From positions 1 to 21,529 of IMG/VR virus record IMGVR_UViG_3300009529_001370: a stretch of DNA of 21,529 nt. One strand, written 5' to 3'. This DNA comes from a virus. The position numbers and the translations under genes were made by a program. Positions 4,025-21,529 of the stretch are shown piece after piece; position 1 is the first letter of the stretch, and each line of letters starts with the position of its first letter. The notes below the pieces were generated by a model. That model had not been told where the DNA came from, searched no databases, and saw nothing but the letters and a program-made list of their open reading frames with translations.

Positions 4025-4558
4025 TTATTTTGCAAAATGCTCATATAAATCACAAGCCCAATTCTTGAATTGTTCAGTTGTTTTAGTACCTTTGGCTGCA
4101 TTGCAACTTCCACAACATGGCACGACATTACTAATTACATAACCCTGCTCATTATCTACTCTATCGAGGCCATTATAAAGGTATCGTCCATTACATGTCG
4201 AGAGATAGTTGCCTTGATTCGGCTTCGCACCACAATAATGGCACGGTCGCTGTGTTAAATTTTGGACTTGTTCTTTAGTAAGTTGCCAATTATATTTTCG
4301 GCGTTTAGCGGCACGTTTTATATTACCTAATACCTGATTAAAAGATGCCTCTCCCACTAATAAAGAAGGACGCCCCTGGCATGAGCAACCACAACTCTTC
4401 GTATGACCATTCCGCAAGTTTGCGCCCCTTACTATAACTTTCTTACCACATTCGCACTCACACAGCCATACTGCTTCTCCTCGTTTATTAGAACCACTTC
4501 TTTCAATGACAGTAAGCCGACTATATTTGTTGCCCACCTCGTCAATTAGTTTTCCCAT
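4025..4558 (-). CDS. HNH homing endonuclease
   Basis: The 177-aa protein has two zinc-type modules. Residues 1-60 carry GNKYSRLTVIER, then WLCECECGK and NLRNGHTKSCGC, the DNA-binding N-terminal module seen in many free-standing phage HNH enzymes. The C-terminal nuclease shows PCHYCGAKP, then NGLDRVDNEQGYVISNVVPC and CGSCNAAKG, the HNH beta-beta-alpha-metal site (the His is probably the one in PCHYCG, the Asn the one in ISNVVP). Its ATG overlaps the portal stop as TAATG, with GAGGGA upstream. Such genes spread by cutting related genomes lacking the insertion. No intron or intein is evident, so it appears free-standing. Confidence 0.9.
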   Translation of the reverse strand: MGKLIDEVGNKYSRLTVIERSGSNKRGEAVWLCECECGKKVIVRGANLRNGHTKSCGCSCQGRPSLLVGEASFNQVLGNIKRAAKRRKYNWQLTKEQVQNLTQRPCHYCGAKPNQGNYLSTCNGRYLYNGLDRVDNEQGYVISNVVPCCGSCNAAKGTKTTEQFKNWACDLYEHFAK

Positions 4559-8850: not shown

Positions 8851-9329
8851 TATAGTACGATCACCAATTCATCTTCCACAGGTTTAGATTCCAGCACTTT
8901 ACCCTCTATGGTTTGATTATCCCCAAGAGCGGGGGCTTCCAACAGAGGGCGAATAATTGGAGGCCCCTTTTCTGCGGGCAAAAATACGATGAGTTTATCA
9001 TCTTCGTAGTGTTTGACGCTAATGTTGAAGTCTTTATTTTCCAGATTAAGCACACTTCGGCAAAAATTCGCCGCTTGGACTGATCCGCCGATGGCTTGTT
9101 TGACCATCGCTTCGTAGATTTCTGATAGATGCTCGCCGATAAAAGTAGCAGCGATATTGGAAACTTCCTCCCACCATCCAGGCTCCAATTTCCATCCCTT
9201 GAGCGTGACGAGGGCGACTCCTAGAGTCGTGGCTATTTCAGAATCGGTGTGGCAACCCTCTGGTCGTTCTGATGGCGGAATGGTAAGCAATTCTTGAACC
9301 CTGCGCTGTCGAAAAGTCCATCGAATCAC
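8850..9329 (-). CDS. terS: Terminase small subunit
   Basis: This 159-aa protein precedes the large subunit with a TAATG overlap. Residues 27-50 form a helix-turn-helix (HTDSEIATTLGVALVTLKGW), as in small terminase subunits that recognise the packaging site; the middle is helical (FIGEHLSEIYEAMVKQAI, SVQAANFCRSVLNLE), matching the oligomerisation region. The C-terminal tail is proline-rich and acidic and would contact the large subunit. It starts at GTG 9329, overlapping the TGA of the GIY-YIG gene (GTGA), with GAGGA 8 nt upstream. Confidence 0.85.
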   Translation of the reverse strand: MIRWTFRQRRVQELLTIPPSERPEGCHTDSEIATTLGVALVTLKGWKLEPGWWEEVSNIAATFIGEHLSEIYEAMVKQAIGGSVQAANFCRSVLNLENKDFNISVKHYEDDKLIVFLPAEKGPPIIRPLLEAPALGDNQTIEGKVLESKPVEDELVIVL

Positions 9330-10150
9330 GAAAATTCCTCTTTTATGATATTCAACTTATGCTTTTTGCATCCACATATCTTCTGTGCATTACTCATTTT
9401 GAGTTTGGTTTTCTCATGGAGATGCTTTTTATAATTAGGATTTCGTTCACCAGTTTGCTTGCCAGTCTTTGCCTCACTAATCTTCTTCTTGGTTTCTTCA
9501 CTATGGTGCTTCCCATACATAGGGTTTCGTTTGCCGATCCTTGCTTTACTCATCTTCTGCTTGGTTTCTACACTGATATGTTTTCCAGTTTCAGCTTTGC
9601 TGATTTTCTGCTTGGTCTCTTCACTGAGATGTTTTCCATAATTGGGACTTTGCTCGCCAGTTCGCTTGCCAGTCTTTGCTGCACTGATTTTCTGTTTCGT
9701 TTCTTCACTGTGATGTTTGCCATACATAGGACTTCGTTTGCCAGTCCTTGCTTCACGCAGCTTCTGTTTAGCCGCCGCACTGTGATGTTTACCATACATA
9801 GGACTTCGCTTGCCAGTATTTGCAACACCTATCTTCTGTTTGGTCTCCTCGGTGCATTGAACTCCAAGTGAACTTCCTGCTGTCGGTGAGAGATTATATT
9901 CAGGCAAAAGCGCATCCAGAAAATATTGCTCACGTTCAATCAGTGTTTCAGATTTAGCCTCTTCCAGAATCTCAAAGATGAATGTAGTTTCACCATATTT
10001 GTCGAAGGCACTTTGAAGATGGAAATTGTGATGCCGTCCACGACGTAATGTGTTTAAATGTACCATCCATCTACGCCGAAGATCCACAGCACTACCAATG
10101 TAGCACTTTCCATTTAGTACATTTTGGATCTGGTAGATGCCACTAATCAT
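9326..10150 (-). CDS. GIY-YIG homing endonuclease with NUMOD3 repeats
   Basis: The start is placed at ATG 10150 (MISGIYQIQNVLNGKCYIGS), because the next upstream ATGs lie inside the promoter. The GIY-YIG nuclease occupies the first ~90 residues: GIY, CYIGS, a catalytic Arg in DLRRRW, and a Glu near IEREQYFLD. The rest is a run of seven NUMOD3-type DNA-binding units, each with a core like EETKQKI and a GKRSPMYGKHH linker. That is more than the one to three I would expect and gives the gene visible internal DNA repeats at 9400-9860. It is a mobile element gene placed immediately ahead of the terminase genes. It shares their transcript, so its promoter may now drive packaging genes. Confidence 0.92.
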   Translation of the reverse strand: MISGIYQIQNVLNGKCYIGSAVDLRRRWMVHLNTLRRGRHHNFHLQSAFDKYGETTFIFEILEEAKSETLIEREQYFLDALLPEYNLSPTAGSSLGVQCTEETKQKIGVANTGKRSPMYGKHHSAAAKQKLREARTGKRSPMYGKHHSEETKQKISAAKTGKRTGEQSPNYGKHLSEETKQKISKAETGKHISVETKQKMSKARIGKRNPMYGKHHSEETKKKISEAKTGKQTGERNPNYKKHLHEKTKLKMSNAQKICGCKKHKLNIIKEEFS

Positions 10151-10160
10151 AGTGCTTTCT

Positions 10161-10189
10161 ATTATACCATACTTGTTCATAAAATGCAA
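10161..10189 (-). promoter_or_regulatory. Strong sigma70 promoter for endonuclease/packaging operon
   Basis: On the minus strand: -35 TTGCAT (10189-10184), 17-bp spacer, -10 TATAAT (10166-10161) preceded by TGG (extended -10). Transcription should begin about 10155-10153, only a few bases before the ATG at 10150, so the endonuclease message would be nearly leaderless. It follows the terminator of the upstream operon. Confidence 0.8.
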
Positions 10190-11554: not shown

Positions 11555-11809
11555 TTATTCACCACACCTGGATACATCGCTCCATTGACCATCCTGCCAT
11601 ATCTGGATAGTGTAGCGGCCATCACCAGCGGGCTTTGATAAATCCCTTGAAATATTGTAACCATCCTTAAGAAGGCCGTCTTCAAATTCACTGCGTCCGA
11701 GGCTATAAAACCCAAAGATGCCAAGTAGGAGAAGCGATATCAAGACGATAGCACCCAACTCTACCTCATGTTTAGATTCCCATCGTTGCCACCGAGTCTT
11801 TAATCTCAT
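11555..11809 (-). CDS. Membrane-anchored small protein, DGLLxDGY family (84 aa)
   Basis: The start ATG 11809 has a perfect AAAAGGAGGTC site 6 nt upstream and lies about 18 nt after the -10 of promoter P1. The protein has a basic N-terminus (MRLKTRWQRW), one transmembrane helix (residues 18-36, LGAIVLISLLLLGIFGF) and a soluble tail of about 45 aa with DGLLKDGY (44-51), GDGRYTIQIW and DG-W. A gene on the other arm (19317-19541) encodes the same layout and motifs, so they are paralogues. N-in/C-out topology is likely from the positive-inside rule. Function unknown. Confidence 0.75.
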   Translation of the reverse strand: MRLKTRWQRWESKHEVELGAIVLISLLLLGIFGFYSLGRSEFEDGLLKDGYNISRDLSKPAGDGRYTIQIWQDGQWSDVSRCGE

Positions 11810-11826
11810 TATTGACCTCCTTTTAG

Positions 11827-11855
11827 ATTGTACCACAAAGACGTGCTTTTGTCAA
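11827..11855 (-). promoter_or_regulatory. Promoter P1, consensus sigma70
   Basis: Minus strand: TTGACA (11855-11850), 17-bp spacer AAAGCACGTCTTTGTGG, then TACAAT (11832-11827) with TG at the extended -10 place. The upstream box GTCTAAAATAA overlaps the stop of the 81-aa gene. It drives the small membrane protein and genes beyond. Confidence 0.9.
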
Positions 11856-12109: not shown

Positions 12110-12144
12110 TGTTTCCTCCATATTCTGAAAAGGCGACTCATACG

Positions 12145-12173
12145 ATTGTACCGCAAAGACGTGCTTTCGTCAA
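12145..12173 (-). promoter_or_regulatory. Promoter P2, sigma70 type
   Basis: Minus strand: TTGACG (12173-12168), 17-bp spacer AAAGCACGTCTTTGCGG, TACAAT (12150-12145). The spacer is nearly identical to that of P1 (one difference), so it is a repeated unit and not chance similarity. It drives the 81-aa gene. Confidence 0.85.
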
Positions 12174-12296: not shown

Positions 12297-12362
12297 AAAG
12301 GCGTCTGACAAGCGACTTTATAGTAGCACAAAGGCGTCTGACAAGCGACTTTATAGTAGCAC
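12297..12362. repeat. Tandem 33-bp direct repeat, two exact copies
   Basis: Copies at 12297-12329 and 12330-12362 are identical; a third partial copy (AAAGGCGT) continues into the spacer of P4. Each unit contains, on the minus strand, a TTGTCA and a TACTATAAA, so it looks like a duplicated promoter segment; TTGTCA-16 bp-TATAAA across copies could itself be a weak promoter. Confidence 0.85.
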
Positions 12363-12381
12363 AAAGGCGTGCTTTTGTCAA
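12353..12381 (-). promoter_or_regulatory. Promoter P4, sigma70 type
   Basis: Minus strand: TTGACA (12381-12376), 17-bp spacer AAAGCACGCCTTTGTGC, TACTAT (12358-12353) with TGC extended -10. The spacer contains AGCAC-N6-GTGCT inverted arms, the same half-sites as the rightward promoters. Upstream box ATCCAAAACAAGAAC matches that of P5. Confidence 0.8.
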
Positions 12382-12452
12382 GTTCTTGTTTTGGATGTTT
12401 AATAAATCGTCGAATGAGGAAAACTGGCCCAAGATTCGCATCTCTATGTATA

Positions 12453-12481
12453 ATAGTAATATAAGAAGATGGTTTTGTCAA
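12453..12481 (-). promoter_or_regulatory. Promoter P5, sigma70 type
   Basis: Minus strand: TTGACA (12481-12476), 17-bp A/T-rich spacer, TACTAT (12458-12453). It is the outermost of the leftward series. Upstream box GTCCAAAATAAGAAT is shared with P4. No gene lies between P5 and P2, so it adds an approximately 330-nt leader to the first gene. Confidence 0.75.
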
Positions 12482-12610
12482 ATTCTTATTTTGGACGTGC
12501 AATGAATACTTTTTGGTTCTTGTTTTTGCGCGTGCAATAAATCATCGAGCGGTGAAGATGACGCTATTTTAGTGGTCTGGGCGAGCTTCGAGCGAAGAGG
12601 ACCCATCGAT

Positions 12611-12657
12611 GCCCCTGCCCCTGCCCCTGCCCCTGCCCCTGCCCCTGCCCCTGCCCC
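12611..12657. repeat. GCCCCT hexamer tandem repeat
   Basis: Seven exact GCCCCT units and a partial eighth (GCCCC) lie between CGAT flanks. On the minus strand this is (AGGGGC)n, with regular G4 runs that could form G-quadruplexes. Unit number is likely to vary by replication slippage. Confidence 0.95.
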
Positions 12658-12765: not shown

Positions 12766-12889
12766 CTACAATATCTAATAGCCAACAGTAACCAGTAGAA
12801 TGTCATAGCCCTGCGCCTACTGTGATACAGCCTCGGCCACTTGACATAATTTGCTATCAGCGTTTGCTGTTGGCTATGATATATTGTAG
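12766..12889. repeat. Imperfect 25-bp inverted repeat with 74-bp loop
   Basis: 12766-12790 (CTACAATATCTAATAGCC...) matches the reverse complement of 12865-12889 at 22 of 25 positions. It sits in the divergent control region and may be a two-site operator or part of an origin. Confidence 0.75.
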
Positions 12890-13847: not shown

Positions 13848-13905
13848 TCGGTCAAGTGGCCTCGGTCATAATCGGTCAAGTGGCCGAGGCCATAATCAGT
13901 CAAGT
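13848..13905. repeat. 24-bp iteron array, three copies
   Basis: TCGGTCAAGTGGCC starts at 13848 and 13872, and the variant TCAGTCAAGT at 13896, an exact 24-bp period. Copies are joined by TCGGTCATAA or GAGGCCATAA, so each unit carries a GGCC-GAGGCC palindromic part. A 24-bp period is about 2.3 helical turns, fitting cooperative protein binding. Confidence 0.85.
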
Positions 13906-13910
13906 CGGGG

Positions 13911-13965
13911 CAGGGGCGAAACAGGGGCGAAACAGGGGCGAAACAGGGGCGAAACAGGGGCGAAA
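13911..13965. repeat. 11-bp tandem repeat CAGGGGCGAAA, five copies
   Basis: Five exact CAGGGGCGAAA units run directly into CAGGAGGGCAAG and the ATG at 13978, so the ribosome binding site looks like a variant of the repeat itself. Copy number is likely variable. Confidence 0.95.
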
Positions 13966-13977
13966 CAGGAGGGCAAG

Positions 13978-14337
13978 ATGCCAACAAGGTTAGCGAACAC
14001 CATCAAAATCAGTATCCCAGATATTCGGGCCGAGATCAAAAAGCTGCCGAATACACGAGATGCTGATCCCATGTGTCGAGATCAGTTCCTGCAGTGTTTC
14101 CGGCGCGAGTTGAGTTGGTGCGTTGCTGAAGCGTTGCGGGCAACCGAGGGCGAAGTGCTCTTCTCAGATCTGCAAGTGCCAAGTCAGGCTAACGGTCAAT
14201 ACATCATGAATTTCGAGGTGTTTGATCGGTCAAGAGCACAACGCAACGCCTACAACTTCCACGGTCAAAACACCTCGCAGTGGTTGTATGCCGGCTGCAT
14301 TCTCTATCAGGAAGGAGAAGTATCGACGCATCATTAA
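13978..14337 (+). CDS. Hypothetical protein (119 aa)
   Basis: The start is ATG 13978, with GGAGG 6 nt upstream; the longer frame from 13708 reads through the tandem repeats and the previous gene and is rejected. The product begins MPTRLANTIKISIPDIRAEI. It has a helical core (DQFLQCFRRELSWCVAEALR) and a C-terminal part with YIMNFEVFDRSRAQ and a QWLYAGCILYQEGE end. No family is recognised. Its expression may depend on the upstream 11-bp repeats. Confidence 0.65.
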   Translation: MPTRLANTIKISIPDIRAEIKKLPNTRDADPMCRDQFLQCFRRELSWCVAEALRATEGEVLFSDLQVPSQANGQYIMNFEVFDRSRAQRNAYNFHGQNTSQWLYAGCILYQEGEVSTHH

Positions 14338-14358
14338 CAGGATACCACAATAGAATAT

Positions 14359-14376
14359 CCGAGACGCCAGTCTCGG
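14359..14376 (+). other. Strong short hairpin between genes
   Basis: CCGAGAC-GCCA-GTCTCGG forms a perfect 7-bp GC-rich stem 21 nt after the stop of the 119-aa gene. There is no T-tract, so it is more likely an RNA stability or processing element than a terminator. Confidence 0.55.
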
Positions 14377-14445
14377 AGTCAGCCTAGAAAATCGTTTCTG
14401 GACTGACGCGGAGGCTGGAGAATCGACGAAAGCAGGGAGGGCAAA

Positions 14446-14664
14446 GTGAAAAGATGGTATATCGGACATCGAGAAGGAAGGAAGGAAATCTTTCAGGCGG
14501 AGAGCACACCAACTGAGGAAAGTCATGGGCATCTGTATGTAGCAGCTATCGGCCCCTTCCGCACGAAACGGGCAGCTATCTGGAGTTGTCAGTACGGTGC
14601 GCACTGGGCAACTATAGCTGAGGCTGAGAAGGCAGCCAAGAGAGACGCGGAATTGTCGGCATAG
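14446..14664 (+). CDS. Hypothetical protein (72 aa), GTG start
   Basis: The GTG at 14446 follows CAGGGAGGGCAAA, the leader also found before two other genes here. The product begins MKRWYIGHREGRKEIFQAES. The pattern of strand, GPFRTKRAAIWSC and AEAEKAAKRDAE resembles short phage proteins with an SPOR- or DUF-like fold, where 'GPF-T---A' precedes a helix; this is a guess from pattern. The preceding 108 nt carry only the hairpin. Confidence 0.6.
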   Translation: MKRWYIGHREGRKEIFQAESTPTEESHGHLYVAAIGPFRTKRAAIWSCQYGAHWATIAEAEKAAKRDAELSA

Positions 14665-14671
14665 CAGGGAA

Positions 14672-14698
14672 GGCCAGTCAGTGAGGAGCTGGCTGGCC
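14672..14698 (+). other. 10-bp stem-loop after the 72-aa gene
   Basis: GGCCAGTCAG (14672-14681) pairs with CTGGCTGGCC (14689-14698) with one G-T pair and a 7-nt loop TGAGGAG. It lacks a T-tract. The loop exposes GAGGAG, which resembles a ribosome binding site, but no start codon follows closely. Confidence 0.55.
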
Positions 14699-14710
14699 AA
14701 ACCATCATAA

Positions 14711-14793
14711 TCGGTCAAGTGGCCGAGGCCATAATCGGTAAAGTGGGGGCTGGGTCCAGGCAGGGGCAACCCAGGGGCAACCCAGGGGCCAGG
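14711..14793. repeat. Second iteron plus 11-bp repeat module
   Basis: Iterons TCGGTCAAGTGGCC (14711) and TCGGTAAAGT (14735) again have a 24-bp period. They are followed by CAGGGGCAACC at 14761 and 14772 and a decayed third unit. The order and spacing match the module at 13848-13980, and it also ends in GGCGAAACAGGGAGGGCAAA before a start codon. Confidence 0.85.
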
Positions 14794-14840
14794 GAGGGGC
14801 AACCATAGGGCGACGAAATCGGCGAAACAGGGAGGGCAAA

Positions 14841-15047
14841 GTGAACGAGGGGATGCGAAAAGCGCAGAACAAGGCGAATCAACTACTCAACAAGGCGAGG
14901 CGCGAAAGAGATCGTAAAGGCTATCGTGAGAATCTTGGCTATGACAAATGTCAAGTTCTCCAAGACTACTGCAGTGAAGTTGGCCTGTCATATTCCGAGA
15001 CCAGTCACATCCTGGCATACTTTGAAGAGGGATGCGACGCTCTGTAG
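14841..15047 (+). CDS. Hypothetical protein (68 aa), GTG start
   Basis: The GTG at 14841 follows CAGGGAGGGCAAA. The product begins MNEGMRKAQNKANQLLNKAR with a long basic helix (residues 3-28) and then VLQDYCSEVGLSYSETSHIL, whose helix-turn-helix-like pattern may bind DNA. No family is recognised. It is the gene controlled by the second repeat module. Confidence 0.6.
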   Translation: MNEGMRKAQNKANQLLNKARRERDRKGYRENLGYDKCQVLQDYCSEVGLSYSETSHILAYFEEGCDAL

Positions 15048-15067
15048 AAGCGCAAGGGGAGGGCAAA

Positions 15068-15328
15068 ATGCCAAGAAACGTCCGTAACTTTTGGATCGAG
15101 GCCGAAGTAGAGGGGCGGAAGTCAAAAATCGCCTTTGGGCCACAGGGCAAAGAGGACGGCTTTCGTTTGACTGTCTATATGCGCAACAAGGACGAAGTCG
15201 AGGCCGTTTTGGGACTCCAGGGCAAAGTAGAGGGCGAAAACGTAGAACTCTGGATCGACTCTGGTGAGGTTGGCGAGGAGGGTCAAGAGGCGAATCAGGG
15301 GATCATCATAATTTGCCGAAAACGGTAG
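15068..15328 (+). CDS. Hypothetical beta-rich protein (86 aa)
   Basis: The start is ATG 15068 after GGGGAGGGCAAA; the frame from 15032 overlaps the previous gene. It begins MPRNVRNFWIEAEVEGRKSK. The pattern FWIEAEVEG-KS-IAFGPQGKEDGF is a strand-turn-strand element with a gap and then VEAVLGLQGKVEGENVELWI, a compact beta-rich fold seen in short phage and plasmid proteins. Function unknown. Confidence 0.65.
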   Translation: MPRNVRNFWIEAEVEGRKSKIAFGPQGKEDGFRLTVYMRNKDEVEAVLGLQGKVEGENVELWIDSGEVGEEGQEANQGIIIICRKR

Positions 15329-15640: not shown

Positions 15641-16803
15641 CGTATAGGGGCATAAAGACAGCGAAAAAAGCGTACTAGGGCGCAAAAAGCGGTGAAAAGC
15701 GTAGATTGTGCTACGAAACACGTAAAAAGGCGTCGAAATGTAGGCTCTAAAAGACCAATGAACAAAGAAAAAACTGGTATAGAGCGTAGAAGGTGGTGAA
15801 CGACTGCACAAGGAAGCAGGGAAAACAGGGAATCGGGGCGTCCTTGCAAAAAAGAAAACAGGGAAAGACTGATAACGAATGTAGCGACTACTGTTTATTG
15901 CTGTGCTGTACCTTAAGGCATAAAGACAGTAGATAACGATGATAGAACACAAAGAAACGATACGTTATGGTCAAGTAAAGATACATAAAATGCACTATTG
16001 CTAAAGTTGATAGGGAGGGACTCAAGGTAAGAGACCAATGAACAAAGAGAAAACTGCAAAAAACTGCGCGTGGCGTAAATGAGCGTAATTGAGTACCTTG
16101 AGGCACTAAGACAGCACAGGGTGATAATAGAACACAGAGGAATCATACGTTATGGTAAAGTAAAGATACATAAAATGCACTATTGCATCAAATATGTAAC
16201 TGTACAAGACTCTGTGACCTATATACCAAAATCCAATTTGACATAATACTAAACGCATCATACGCAAAACTGCGAGCACCAAAATTGTTCCCTTTTCGGC
16301 AAAAAATATGCAATAGTGCGTTTCTTGTATGTTTACTTTACCATAATGTATCGTTTCTTTGCTTCCTTCTGTGTTGGTCTATGGTTTGCTGAAAAAAGTG
16401 CAAGAGTGTCTGAAAATGCAAGAGTGCATTTTATGTATCTTTACTTTACCATAACGTATCATTCTTCTGCAGTGTGCTAACATTCTCTACTGTCTTTATG
16501 CCTAAAGGTGTTTACTTGACATAACGTTTTCGCCTTCCACCTTTTATAGTATTATCCTGTTTACCCTGTGTTCTTTGCTGTCTTTATTCCGAGAAAGTTG
16601 AGTCTCTGAGGCTCAAGTATTGTGAAGAGACAATTTTATGTCAAGTAAATCAAGCATCCAGCCTAGCGAAGCGTGTTTCCCTGTTTTCCCTGCTTCTGTG
16701 CATTTCGCGTATCCCTTCTCGCACAAGGTCACTACTTACCCGTTTTCTATGCCCCTGTGCAGTTTATGTATGCGAGTTTTCAGGACACCTTAACCACCCA
16801 AAT

Positions 16804-16832
16804 TTGACAATTCATAGCACTTGTGCTACGAT
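16804..16832 (+). promoter_or_regulatory. Promoter A with TAGCAC-TT-GTGCTA operator
   Basis: TTGACA (16804-16809), 17-bp spacer, TACGAT (16827-16832) with TGC extended -10. The palindrome TAGCAC-TT-GTGCTA (16815-16828) fills the spacer and touches the -10. It drives the SWIM gene, whose ribosome binding site follows 20 nt later. Same sequence as promoters B and C. Confidence 0.88.
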
Positions 16833-16860
16833 ATAATCAAAGTCCAAAGGAGTAAATGCC

Positions 16861-18030: not shown

Positions 18031-18368
18031 GAACAAACGACTGGTACAAATGCACCGCACGAGAGGCATCGTCCCGCGACGATAAACCTCTTATGAGGGC
18101 AGCCCAAAACGCACAATTTGCGGCACAACCCTTCGAGACTTACATTGATGGCGTGATTCGCCACCTCAACGGTGCTATTGTTGAGATTGAACGCATCGTC
18201 AAAAGTGCAATTGAAGACGGCGACGATCCACGAGCGTCCGCCACCTGTGTTGCAGAGCGGATCATCCAGACCGTCACCTGGGCGGTGGCAAACGCACAGA
18301 TCGGGTACTTGGTCACTTCCGCAGCGGCACTCGATGAAGCAGCGAAGAAGTTACCCAAGGAAACATAA
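18027..18368 (+). CDS. Hypothetical helical protein (113 aa)
   Basis: The ATG at 18027 has AGAAGGAG upstream and an ATGA overlap with the previous stop. The product begins MRTNDWYKCTAREASSRDDK, then forms long helices (YIDGVIRHLNGAIVEIERIV, CVAERIIQTVTWAVANAQIG, and an Ala-rich last helix). A four-helix bundle is plausible. No family is recognised. Confidence 0.6.
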   Translation: MRTNDWYKCTAREASSRDDKPLMRAAQNAQFAAQPFETYIDGVIRHLNGAIVEIERIVKSAIEDGDDPRASATCVAERIIQTVTWAVANAQIGYLVTSAAALDEAAKKLPKET

Positions 18369-19541: not shown

Positions 19542-19954
19542 ATGACCAAGCACAACTATGTTACGTGGAATTGCCCTTCGTGTGGTTCACGATGAATCTG
19601 TGTGAACAATCGGGCGACGATTGGAATGACGTACCTTTTGAATACAACGCTGAACCTCCATCTTTGAGGCGTGGGCAAGATTGGGAAATATTTCGTGTGG
19701 CCATATTTGCCAACCCCTACAACTACGAATTGTTGACGCCGGACAGCGGCTATTATGGCGGCCCGTGGTCAGTTGATGACATAAATGCGGGAGCCACACC
19801 GTGGTTGCGTTTGACTGACTTACATTGTCAGCATCTAACGATGGCGAGTCTTATGGCAGGCACTACCTACGCCGAATTCAAGGAATTCGCTGCTCGTTAT
19901 GGGTTGTTCATCTGGCTCGACGAAGGCACTTTAGCCGAATTTGACAAATCATAG
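19538..19954 (+). CDS. Hypothetical protein (138 aa)
   Basis: The ATG at 19538 overlaps the previous stop (ATGA). The product begins MNDQAQLCYVELPFVWFTMN and is aromatic-rich with NPYNYELLTPDSGYYGG and PWLRLTDLHCQHLT. No family is recognised. Its last codons (EFDKS, stop) form the -35 region of promoter B, so gene end and promoter share bases. Confidence 0.6.
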   Translation: MNDQAQLCYVELPFVWFTMNLCEQSGDDWNDVPFEYNAEPPSLRRGQDWEIFRVAIFANPYNYELLTPDSGYYGGPWSVDDINAGATPWLRLTDLHCQHLTMASLMAGTTYAEFKEFAARYGLFIWLDEGTLAEFDKS

Positions 19955-19969
19955 CACTTGTGCTATGAT
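19941..19969 (+). promoter_or_regulatory. Promoter B with CATAGCAC-TT-GTGCTATG operator
   Basis: TTGACA (19941-19946), 17-bp spacer, TATGAT (19964-19969). The palindrome CATAGCAC-TT-GTGCTATG (19950-19967) has perfect 8-bp arms, the best of the three copies. It drives the DUF551-like gene; the ribosome binding site GAAAGGAG follows. Confidence 0.9.
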
Positions 19970-19993
19970 ATGCTCATTGAAAGGAGATCAAAA

Positions 19994-21190: not shown

Positions 21191-21456
21191 CTGATCGACT
21201 CGACATTGGTGATGGAGACAGTATCCCGATGACCATTGCTGCCATTCAACCAGGCGATTACATCTGCAGCCAATTAGCCCCACACATCGTCGGTCGTGTA
21301 GTGCGACGTGGTGTTGTGACCCGCTATCCTGCATTCATCATCGAGAACTACAGGGGCGTTCTAGCTGTGGTTTTGGAATCTGATACGGTGATTCTTGGTT
21401 TAGGCAATATCCAGGACTTAGAACAACGCATAAGCGACGAATTTGACAATTCATAG
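21187..21456 (+). CDS. Hypothetical beta-rich protein (89 aa)
   Basis: The start is ATG 21187 (ATGA overlap). The product begins MTDRLDIGDGDSIPMTIAAI and is rich in hydrophobic strands (GRVVRRGVVTRYPAFIIENY, GVLAVVLESDTVILGLG), ending DEFDNS. A small SH3-like or KOW-like barrel is possible. Its last codons overlap promoter C. Confidence 0.55.
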   Translation: MTDRLDIGDGDSIPMTIAAIQPGDYICSQLAPHIVGRVVRRGVVTRYPAFIIENYRGVLAVVLESDTVILGLGNIQDLEQRISDEFDNS

Positions 21457-21471
21457 CACTTGTGCTACGAT
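21443..21471 (+). promoter_or_regulatory. Promoter C with TAGCAC-TT-GTGCTA operator
   Basis: TTGACA (21443-21448), 17-bp spacer, TACGAT (21466-21471) with the TAGCAC-TT-GTGCTA palindrome at 21454-21467. Like promoter B it overlaps the last codons of the upstream gene. The gene it drives lies outside the window. Confidence 0.88.
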
Positions 21472-21529
21472 ATAGTCAGGAAGACCTGGACAAGCCTGCC
21501 GATGTTTGTGCGTTGAACTTGTACTTGAC

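What the first reader, a model, noticed from the sequence alone, without database searches (positions are those of the whole stretch)
13848..14843. Repeat module (24-bp iterons + 11-bp G-rich repeats) wired into ribosome binding sites
Two loci share the same order: 24-bp-period iterons (GGTCAAGTGGCC), then 11-bp units (CAGGGGCGAAA x5 or CAGGGGCAACC x2), then CAGGAGGGCAAG or CAGGGAGGGCAAA and the start codon. The ribosome binding site itself is a variant of the repeat unit. A third gene (14446) has the terminal leader without the repeats. Copy-number change in an 11-bp unit would alter the leader length and the number of G-rich ribosome-standby sites without touching the coding frame, a possible translational tuning or phase-variation device. 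I know of no described phage element of this form.
Basis: partly seen in the sequence, partly recalled or inferred. Interest (0 to 1): 0.75.

Follow-up and report, generated by a model that had tools for sequence, protein, structure and literature searches.

The report
Repeat-bearing leader before swapped phage genes
An uncultured phage carries two copies of a non-coding leader (hairpin, short G-rich repeats, strong ribosome-binding site) that sits in front of different small genes in related phages; it resembles the 'start-associated' repeats already known in mycobacteriophages, and nothing shows that it acts as a switch.

Summary
The repeats are real. The module occurs twice in the window and once in each of two related phage lineages (80-98% alike over shared blocks), always between a stop codon and a start codon, but before four different genes.

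Corrections: (1) at locus 1 the '24-bp iterons' also form an inverted repeat with a predicted 14-bp-stem hairpin, kept in relative L006; (2) at locus 2 the array does not touch the ribosome-binding site (23 nt lie between); (3) the motif GGAGGGCAAARTG marks four starts with or without arrays, so its likeness to the repeat unit is not special to arrays.

Unit number differs between relatives, and gene 13978 has the module in the window but none in L007, so the array is variable and dispensable. L006's module looks like a locus-1/locus-2 hybrid and L006 lacks the two genes between them, as recombination at these leaders would leave. Two contigs of one relative from two samples are identical, so there is no sign of phase variation.

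Best reading: an intercistronic leader (hairpin, open purine-rich spacer, strong start signal) that doubles as a gene-exchange joint; the G-rich units probably arose by slippage. Closest known: SAS/ESAS of Cluster K mycobacteriophages. Translational tuning is untested.

The parts
13848..13905 (+). Locus 1: 24-bp direct repeat, 2.4 copies
13856..13893 (+). Locus 1 hairpin: arms 13856-13869 and 13880-13893, 10-nt loop, 8 nt after stop codon 13845-13847
   Evidence: same hairpin in L006
13911..13969 (+). Locus 1 array (CAGGGGCGAAA)5.4
13968..13980 (+). Start-associated motif GGAGGGCAAGATG with the start codon of gene 13978
13978..14337 (+). Gene behind locus 1 (119 aa, unknown); without module in L007
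14359..14407 (+). Structured leader of gene 14446: stems 14359-14365/14370-14376 and 14378-14390/14395-14407
14436..14448 (+). Start-associated motif of gene 14446, no arrays
14672..14698 (+). Hairpin after the stop codon of gene 14446 (11-bp stem), identical in L007
14705..14746 (+). Locus 2: about 1.6 iteron units, no left hairpin arm
14761..14804 (+). Locus 2 array of CAGGGGCAACC-like units
14831..14843 (+). Start-associated motif with the start codon of gene 14841
15058..15070 (+). Start-associated motif with the start codon of gene 15068, no arrays
12830..12845 (-). Iteron core GTCAAGTGGCCGAGGC in the divergent control region
12610..12657 (-). (CAGGGG)8 array; relatives have other G-rich arrays at this site

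Best explanation
It is a non-coding intercistronic leader cassette. After the stop codon of one small gene comes a hairpin or inverted repeat, then a purine-rich, little-structured spacer containing G-rich units, then a strong start-associated Shine-Dalgarno motif and the start codon of the next gene. Its likely job is punctuation: the hairpin sets off the upstream message and the open spacer lets ribosomes load independently on the next gene. Homologous copies stand before different genes and act as joints for recombination, by which small genes are gained, lost or swapped. The 11-bp units probably arose by slippage duplication of leader sequence next to the RBS, so their number drifts. Shown: homology, position, variable unit number, different downstream genes, absence in L006 of the genes that lie between loci 1 and 2. 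Inferred: the hairpin in vivo, independent initiation, slippage, and recombination between modules.
For: Locus 1, locus 2, L006 and L007 modules align (80-98% over shared blocks) but precede four different genes. The L006 module matches locus 1 in its left hairpin arm and mostly locus 2 in its G-rich part, and L006 lacks both genes between the loci. L007 lacks one 24-bp unit at locus 2, and the whole locus 1 module with its upstream gene. A hairpin follows the stop codon in all four modules, with two unrelated hairpin sequences. RBS motif enriched at starts. RBSs behind modules predicted more open. GGCGAAACAGG, repeated at locus 1, stands once next to the RBS in locus 2 and L007, and with one change in L006.
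Against: Only three phage lineages carry the module, so independent comparisons are few, and the accessibility difference rests on four homologous leaders. The locus 1 hairpin shows only one pair change (G-T to A-T) between two genomes. The hybrid pattern in L006 is mosaic, not a clean breakpoint. A DNA-binding role is not excluded: the iteron core also lies in the divergent control region.
Confidence: 0.55

Rival explanations
1. The inverted repeat/iteron is an operator: a phage DNA-binding protein binds GTCAAGTGGCCGAGGC in the module and in the divergent control region, as proposed for ESAS.
For: The exact core lies in the divergent region of window and L006 and with one change in L007; dyad symmetry at locus 1.
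Against: No sigma-70-like promoter in the modules; the dyad is lost at locus 2 and L007; no candidate regulator identified.
Confidence: 0.2
2. One reading: the array is a translational tuning or phase-variation device whose unit number sets expression.
For: Unit number differs between lineages; array abuts the RBS at locus 1; RBSs behind modules predicted open.
Against: Gene 13978 lacks the module in L007; identical in two contigs of one phage; at locus 2 the array is 23 nt from the RBS; downstream genes differ.
Confidence: 0.1
3. The arrays form G-quadruplexes in the message or the non-template strand that affect transcription or translation.
For: All G3+N1-7 quadruplex motifs of the window lie in the three arrays (0.12 expected), and the only one of G001 lies in its module; all on the coding strand.
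Against: G004/L007 has no such motif in its module.
Confidence: 0.07
4. The arrays are neutral slippage debris in spacer DNA and the leader has no function beyond an ordinary RBS.
For: Units differ between loci and relatives, and the minus-strand site holds unrelated G-rich arrays in relatives.
Against: A hairpin, spacer and RBS order is kept before four different genes.
Confidence: 0.08

Closest known systems
Start Associated Sequences and extended SAS (SAS/ESAS) of Cluster K mycobacteriophages (PMC3203893)
   Same: Well-kept motif of about 13 bp at the RBS of some non-structural genes; inverted repeats with a short spacer upstream of about half; long intergenic gaps; occurs before genes of different families.
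   Different: Unrelated sequences; no tandem array between inverted repeat and SAS reported there; 11-19 copies per genome there, about 2-5 here; there ESAS stays with a gene family, here the module does not; RNA pairing of the arms was not supported there, here it is possible.
SAS/ESAS of Microbacterium Cluster EF and start-linked inverted repeats of Cluster EG (PMC7302621)
   Same: RBS-position motif with a second motif upstream (EF); inverted repeats 14-22 bp before starts, kept although the region differs (EG).
   Different: Unrelated sequences; no variable G-rich array described in the passages read.
17-bp dyad repeats of Cluster O mycobacteriophages (PMC4351075)
   Same: Short repeats between genes; recombination between copies proposed to cause gene loss or gain.
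   Different: Over 30 palindromic copies, not tied to starts.
Variable tandem repeats in 5' leaders of bacterial surface-protein genes (from memory, not tested)
   Same: Repeat tract before the start codon that leaves the reading frame alone.
   Different: There an effect on expression was measured; here none is.

Membership tests
SAS (Cluster K type) | Conserved motif of about 13 bp with the Shine-Dalgarno, a few bases before several starts | tested here: met
   GGAGGGCAAARTG at four starts, 0-1 mismatch, 0.05 expected; more at starts in G001 and G004
SAS (Cluster K type) | Consensus GGGATAGGAGCCC | tested here: not met
   The motif here is GGAGGGCAAARTG
SAS (Cluster K type) | 11-19 copies per genome, in the non-structural part | tested here: not met
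   About 2-5 good copies at starts per genome (window, G001, G004), in the small-gene region; records may be incomplete
ESAS | Inverted repeats with a short spacer directly upstream of the SAS | tested here: inconclusive
   Present at locus 1 and L006, with arrays between it and the SAS; absent at locus 2 and L007, which have another hairpin
ESAS | Element kept with the same gene family across genomes | tested here: not met
   Gene 13978: module in window, none in G004; ArdC-N-like gene: module in G004, none in G003
Phase-variation repeat tract | Copy number varies within a population | tested here: inconclusive
   Differs between lineages, identical in two contigs of one phage; no reads available
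Phase-variation repeat tract | Copy number changes expression | not testable with these tools
   Needs reporters
Intrinsic terminator | GC-rich hairpin followed by a T run | tested here: not met
   No T run after the module hairpins
Rfam families | Match at the gathering score | tested here: not met
   No match in window, L006, L007, L008

The most novel reading that the evidence does not exclude
A portable phage leader whose variable 11-bp array sets the distance between an intercistronic hairpin and the ribosome-binding site, so that slippage and recombination tune expression of whichever small gene stands behind it.
Probability: 0.1. Interest if true: 0.6.

Novelty: new variant of a known kind. 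Interest (0 to 1): 0.33.

Why it matters
In the papers read here, start-associated repeats are described in actinobacterial phages, with function unknown. A further, unrelated phage group with a similar layout, where the element stands before different genes and its unit number varies, suggests that such leaders can be joints at which phages plug in small genes with a ready-made start signal. Natural leaders with no, two, three and five units make the translational idea directly testable.

Tried and rejected
Two tandem CAGGGGCGAAA units in IMG/VR: only one other phage lineage (L003-L005), where the site is non-coding and not at a start. CAGGGGC three times at 11-bp period: L006 plus five contigs with different G-rich repeats. 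Iteron pattern and RBS-proximal leader pattern: L006 only. No match of the module in named phages or plasmids. TerL search of species genomes found no prophage or host. Distant loci sharing neighbour gene 15068 lack the module; L046 has an 11-bp GC-rich array, but in a different sequence context. Rfam: nothing. Promoter reading of the iterons: no -35/-10 pair. Terminator reading: no T run. Replication-origin reading: considered, no support seen, not tested further. Literature searches for variable tandem repeats in phage leaders returned nothing.

Full report
What was checked. The window is a 21.5-kb virus record of a tailed phage with terminase genes on the minus strand. It has no DNA match among named phages and only distant terminase relatives there (at most about 26% identity in the rows listed). 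They are far above chance, and the two loci are homologous (96 bp at 81%).

At locus 1 the two full iteron units differ in just the way that makes them an inverted repeat: TGGCCTCGGTCA and TGGCCGAGGCCA. The strand is predicted to fold into a 14-bp stem with a 10-nt loop (z -5.5), starting 8 nt after the stop codon of the upstream gene. L006 has the same hairpin, with one G-T pair turned into A-T. Locus 2 lacks the left arm and instead has an unrelated 11-bp-stem hairpin after the stop codon of gene 14446, identical in L007. The array at locus 2 does not touch the RBS; 23 nt lie between. The iteron core also occurs on the minus strand of the divergent control region (12845-12835), and a (CAGGGG)8 array lies further along that strand.

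Relatives. TerL and iteron searches gave L006 (G001, 45.6 kb), L007/L009 (G002/G004, identical over the 21.3 kb compared) and L008 (G003, 79.7 kb). In L007 the segment between the end of gene 13360 and the RBS of gene 13978 is missing, so this gene has no module there, although its protein is 97% identical. At locus 2, L007 has one 24-bp unit fewer and two G-rich units before a gene with an ArdC N-terminal-domain match (PF08401); L008 has that gene without a module. L006 has one module with three units before yet another gene. Its left arm agrees with locus 1 and its G-rich part mostly with locus 2, and the two genes between the loci are absent. Recombination between two modules would leave this, although the pattern is not a clean breakpoint. 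Gene 14841 is also cut down in L006, apparently between two GGGATGCGA repeats (reading).

The RBS and the unit. GGAGGGCAAARTG occurs at four starts in the window with 0-1 mismatch (0.05 expected) and at further starts in G001 and G004. Two of the four have no array. Against the locus 1 unit, RBSs behind modules score 9-10; the other 34 average 6.4 but reach 10. The simplest account is that the unit came from the leader next to the RBS: GGCGAAACAGG stands there once in locus 2 and L007 and with one change in L006, and is tandemly repeated only at locus 1. This is inference.

Mechanism. The constant anatomy of the four modules is stop codon, hairpin, G-rich spacer, start-associated RBS, start codon of a gene that differs each time. 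RBSs behind modules are predicted less paired (0.67 against 0.47 unpaired; one-sided p = 0.005; four homologous leaders against 34). I therefore favour an intercistronic leader that separates the upstream message from independent initiation at the next gene and doubles as an exchange joint. The operator reading is the main rival, because the core recurs in the divergent control region. Quadruplex motifs lie in all three arrays of the window but are absent from G004. Phase variation has no positive evidence.

What is known. Cluster K mycobacteriophages carry a 13-bp start-associated sequence at RBS position, about half with 17-bp inverted repeats upstream, function unknown (PMC3203893). Microbacterium Cluster EF has a like layout and EG has start-linked inverted repeats (PMC7302621). 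Cluster O has dyad repeats with recombination between copies (PMC4351075). The present element works like these but is not a member by sequence, copy number or gene linkage. The variable array between the two parts is the new point.

A second structured leader. Upstream of gene 14446 lies a two-stem element; two pairs change on both sides across three genomes, one pair is broken in L008 and one is mismatched in the other two. The first stem excludes an alternative pairing that the window sequence is predicted to prefer. In L008 it precedes a different gene. The pattern scan found it only in these phages, with no Rfam match. It repeats the theme of leaders shared between different genes.

Limits. 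One phage group without a known host, three module-bearing lineages, no reads, no transcripts. All statements on function are inference.

Noticed in passing
window 14359-14407; L007rc 18154-18261; L008rc 11653-11755: Conserved two-stem leader with two covarying pairs and a mutually exclusive alternative pairing, before different genes in different phages; no Rfam match.
   Followed up: partly
window 12610-12657; G001 38838-38967; G004 41734-41899: The same site in the divergent region holds G-rich tandem arrays with different units (6, 16 and 9/44 bp) in three relatives.
   Followed up: partly
window 16801-16839, 19938-19976, 21440-21478: Three near-identical sigma-70-like promoter sequences with a TAGCACTTGTGCTA dyad, possibly operator-controlled.
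   Followed up: no
window 11826-11855, 12144-12173, 12352-12381, 12452-12481: Repeated leftward promoter-like sequence (TTGACA, 17 nt, TACAAT or TACTAT) upstream of minus-strand genes.
   Followed up: no
window 15908-16001, 16093-16186, 16305-16509: Direct and inverted copies of a repeat of about 94 bp, also present in L006 and L007.
   Followed up: no
window 9326-10189 and 4025-4558 (minus strand): Two ORFs that look like homing-endonuclease genes (GIY-YIG-like with repeated motifs, and HNH-like), judged by eye only.
   Followed up: no
L003 46-67, L004 13892-13913, L005 312-333: Another phage lineage keeps two tandem CAGGGGCGAAA units in a non-coding region, not at a start codon.
   Followed up: partly
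L006rc 8994-9021: Remnant of gene 14841, apparently left by a deletion between GGGATGCGA direct repeats.
   Followed up: partly
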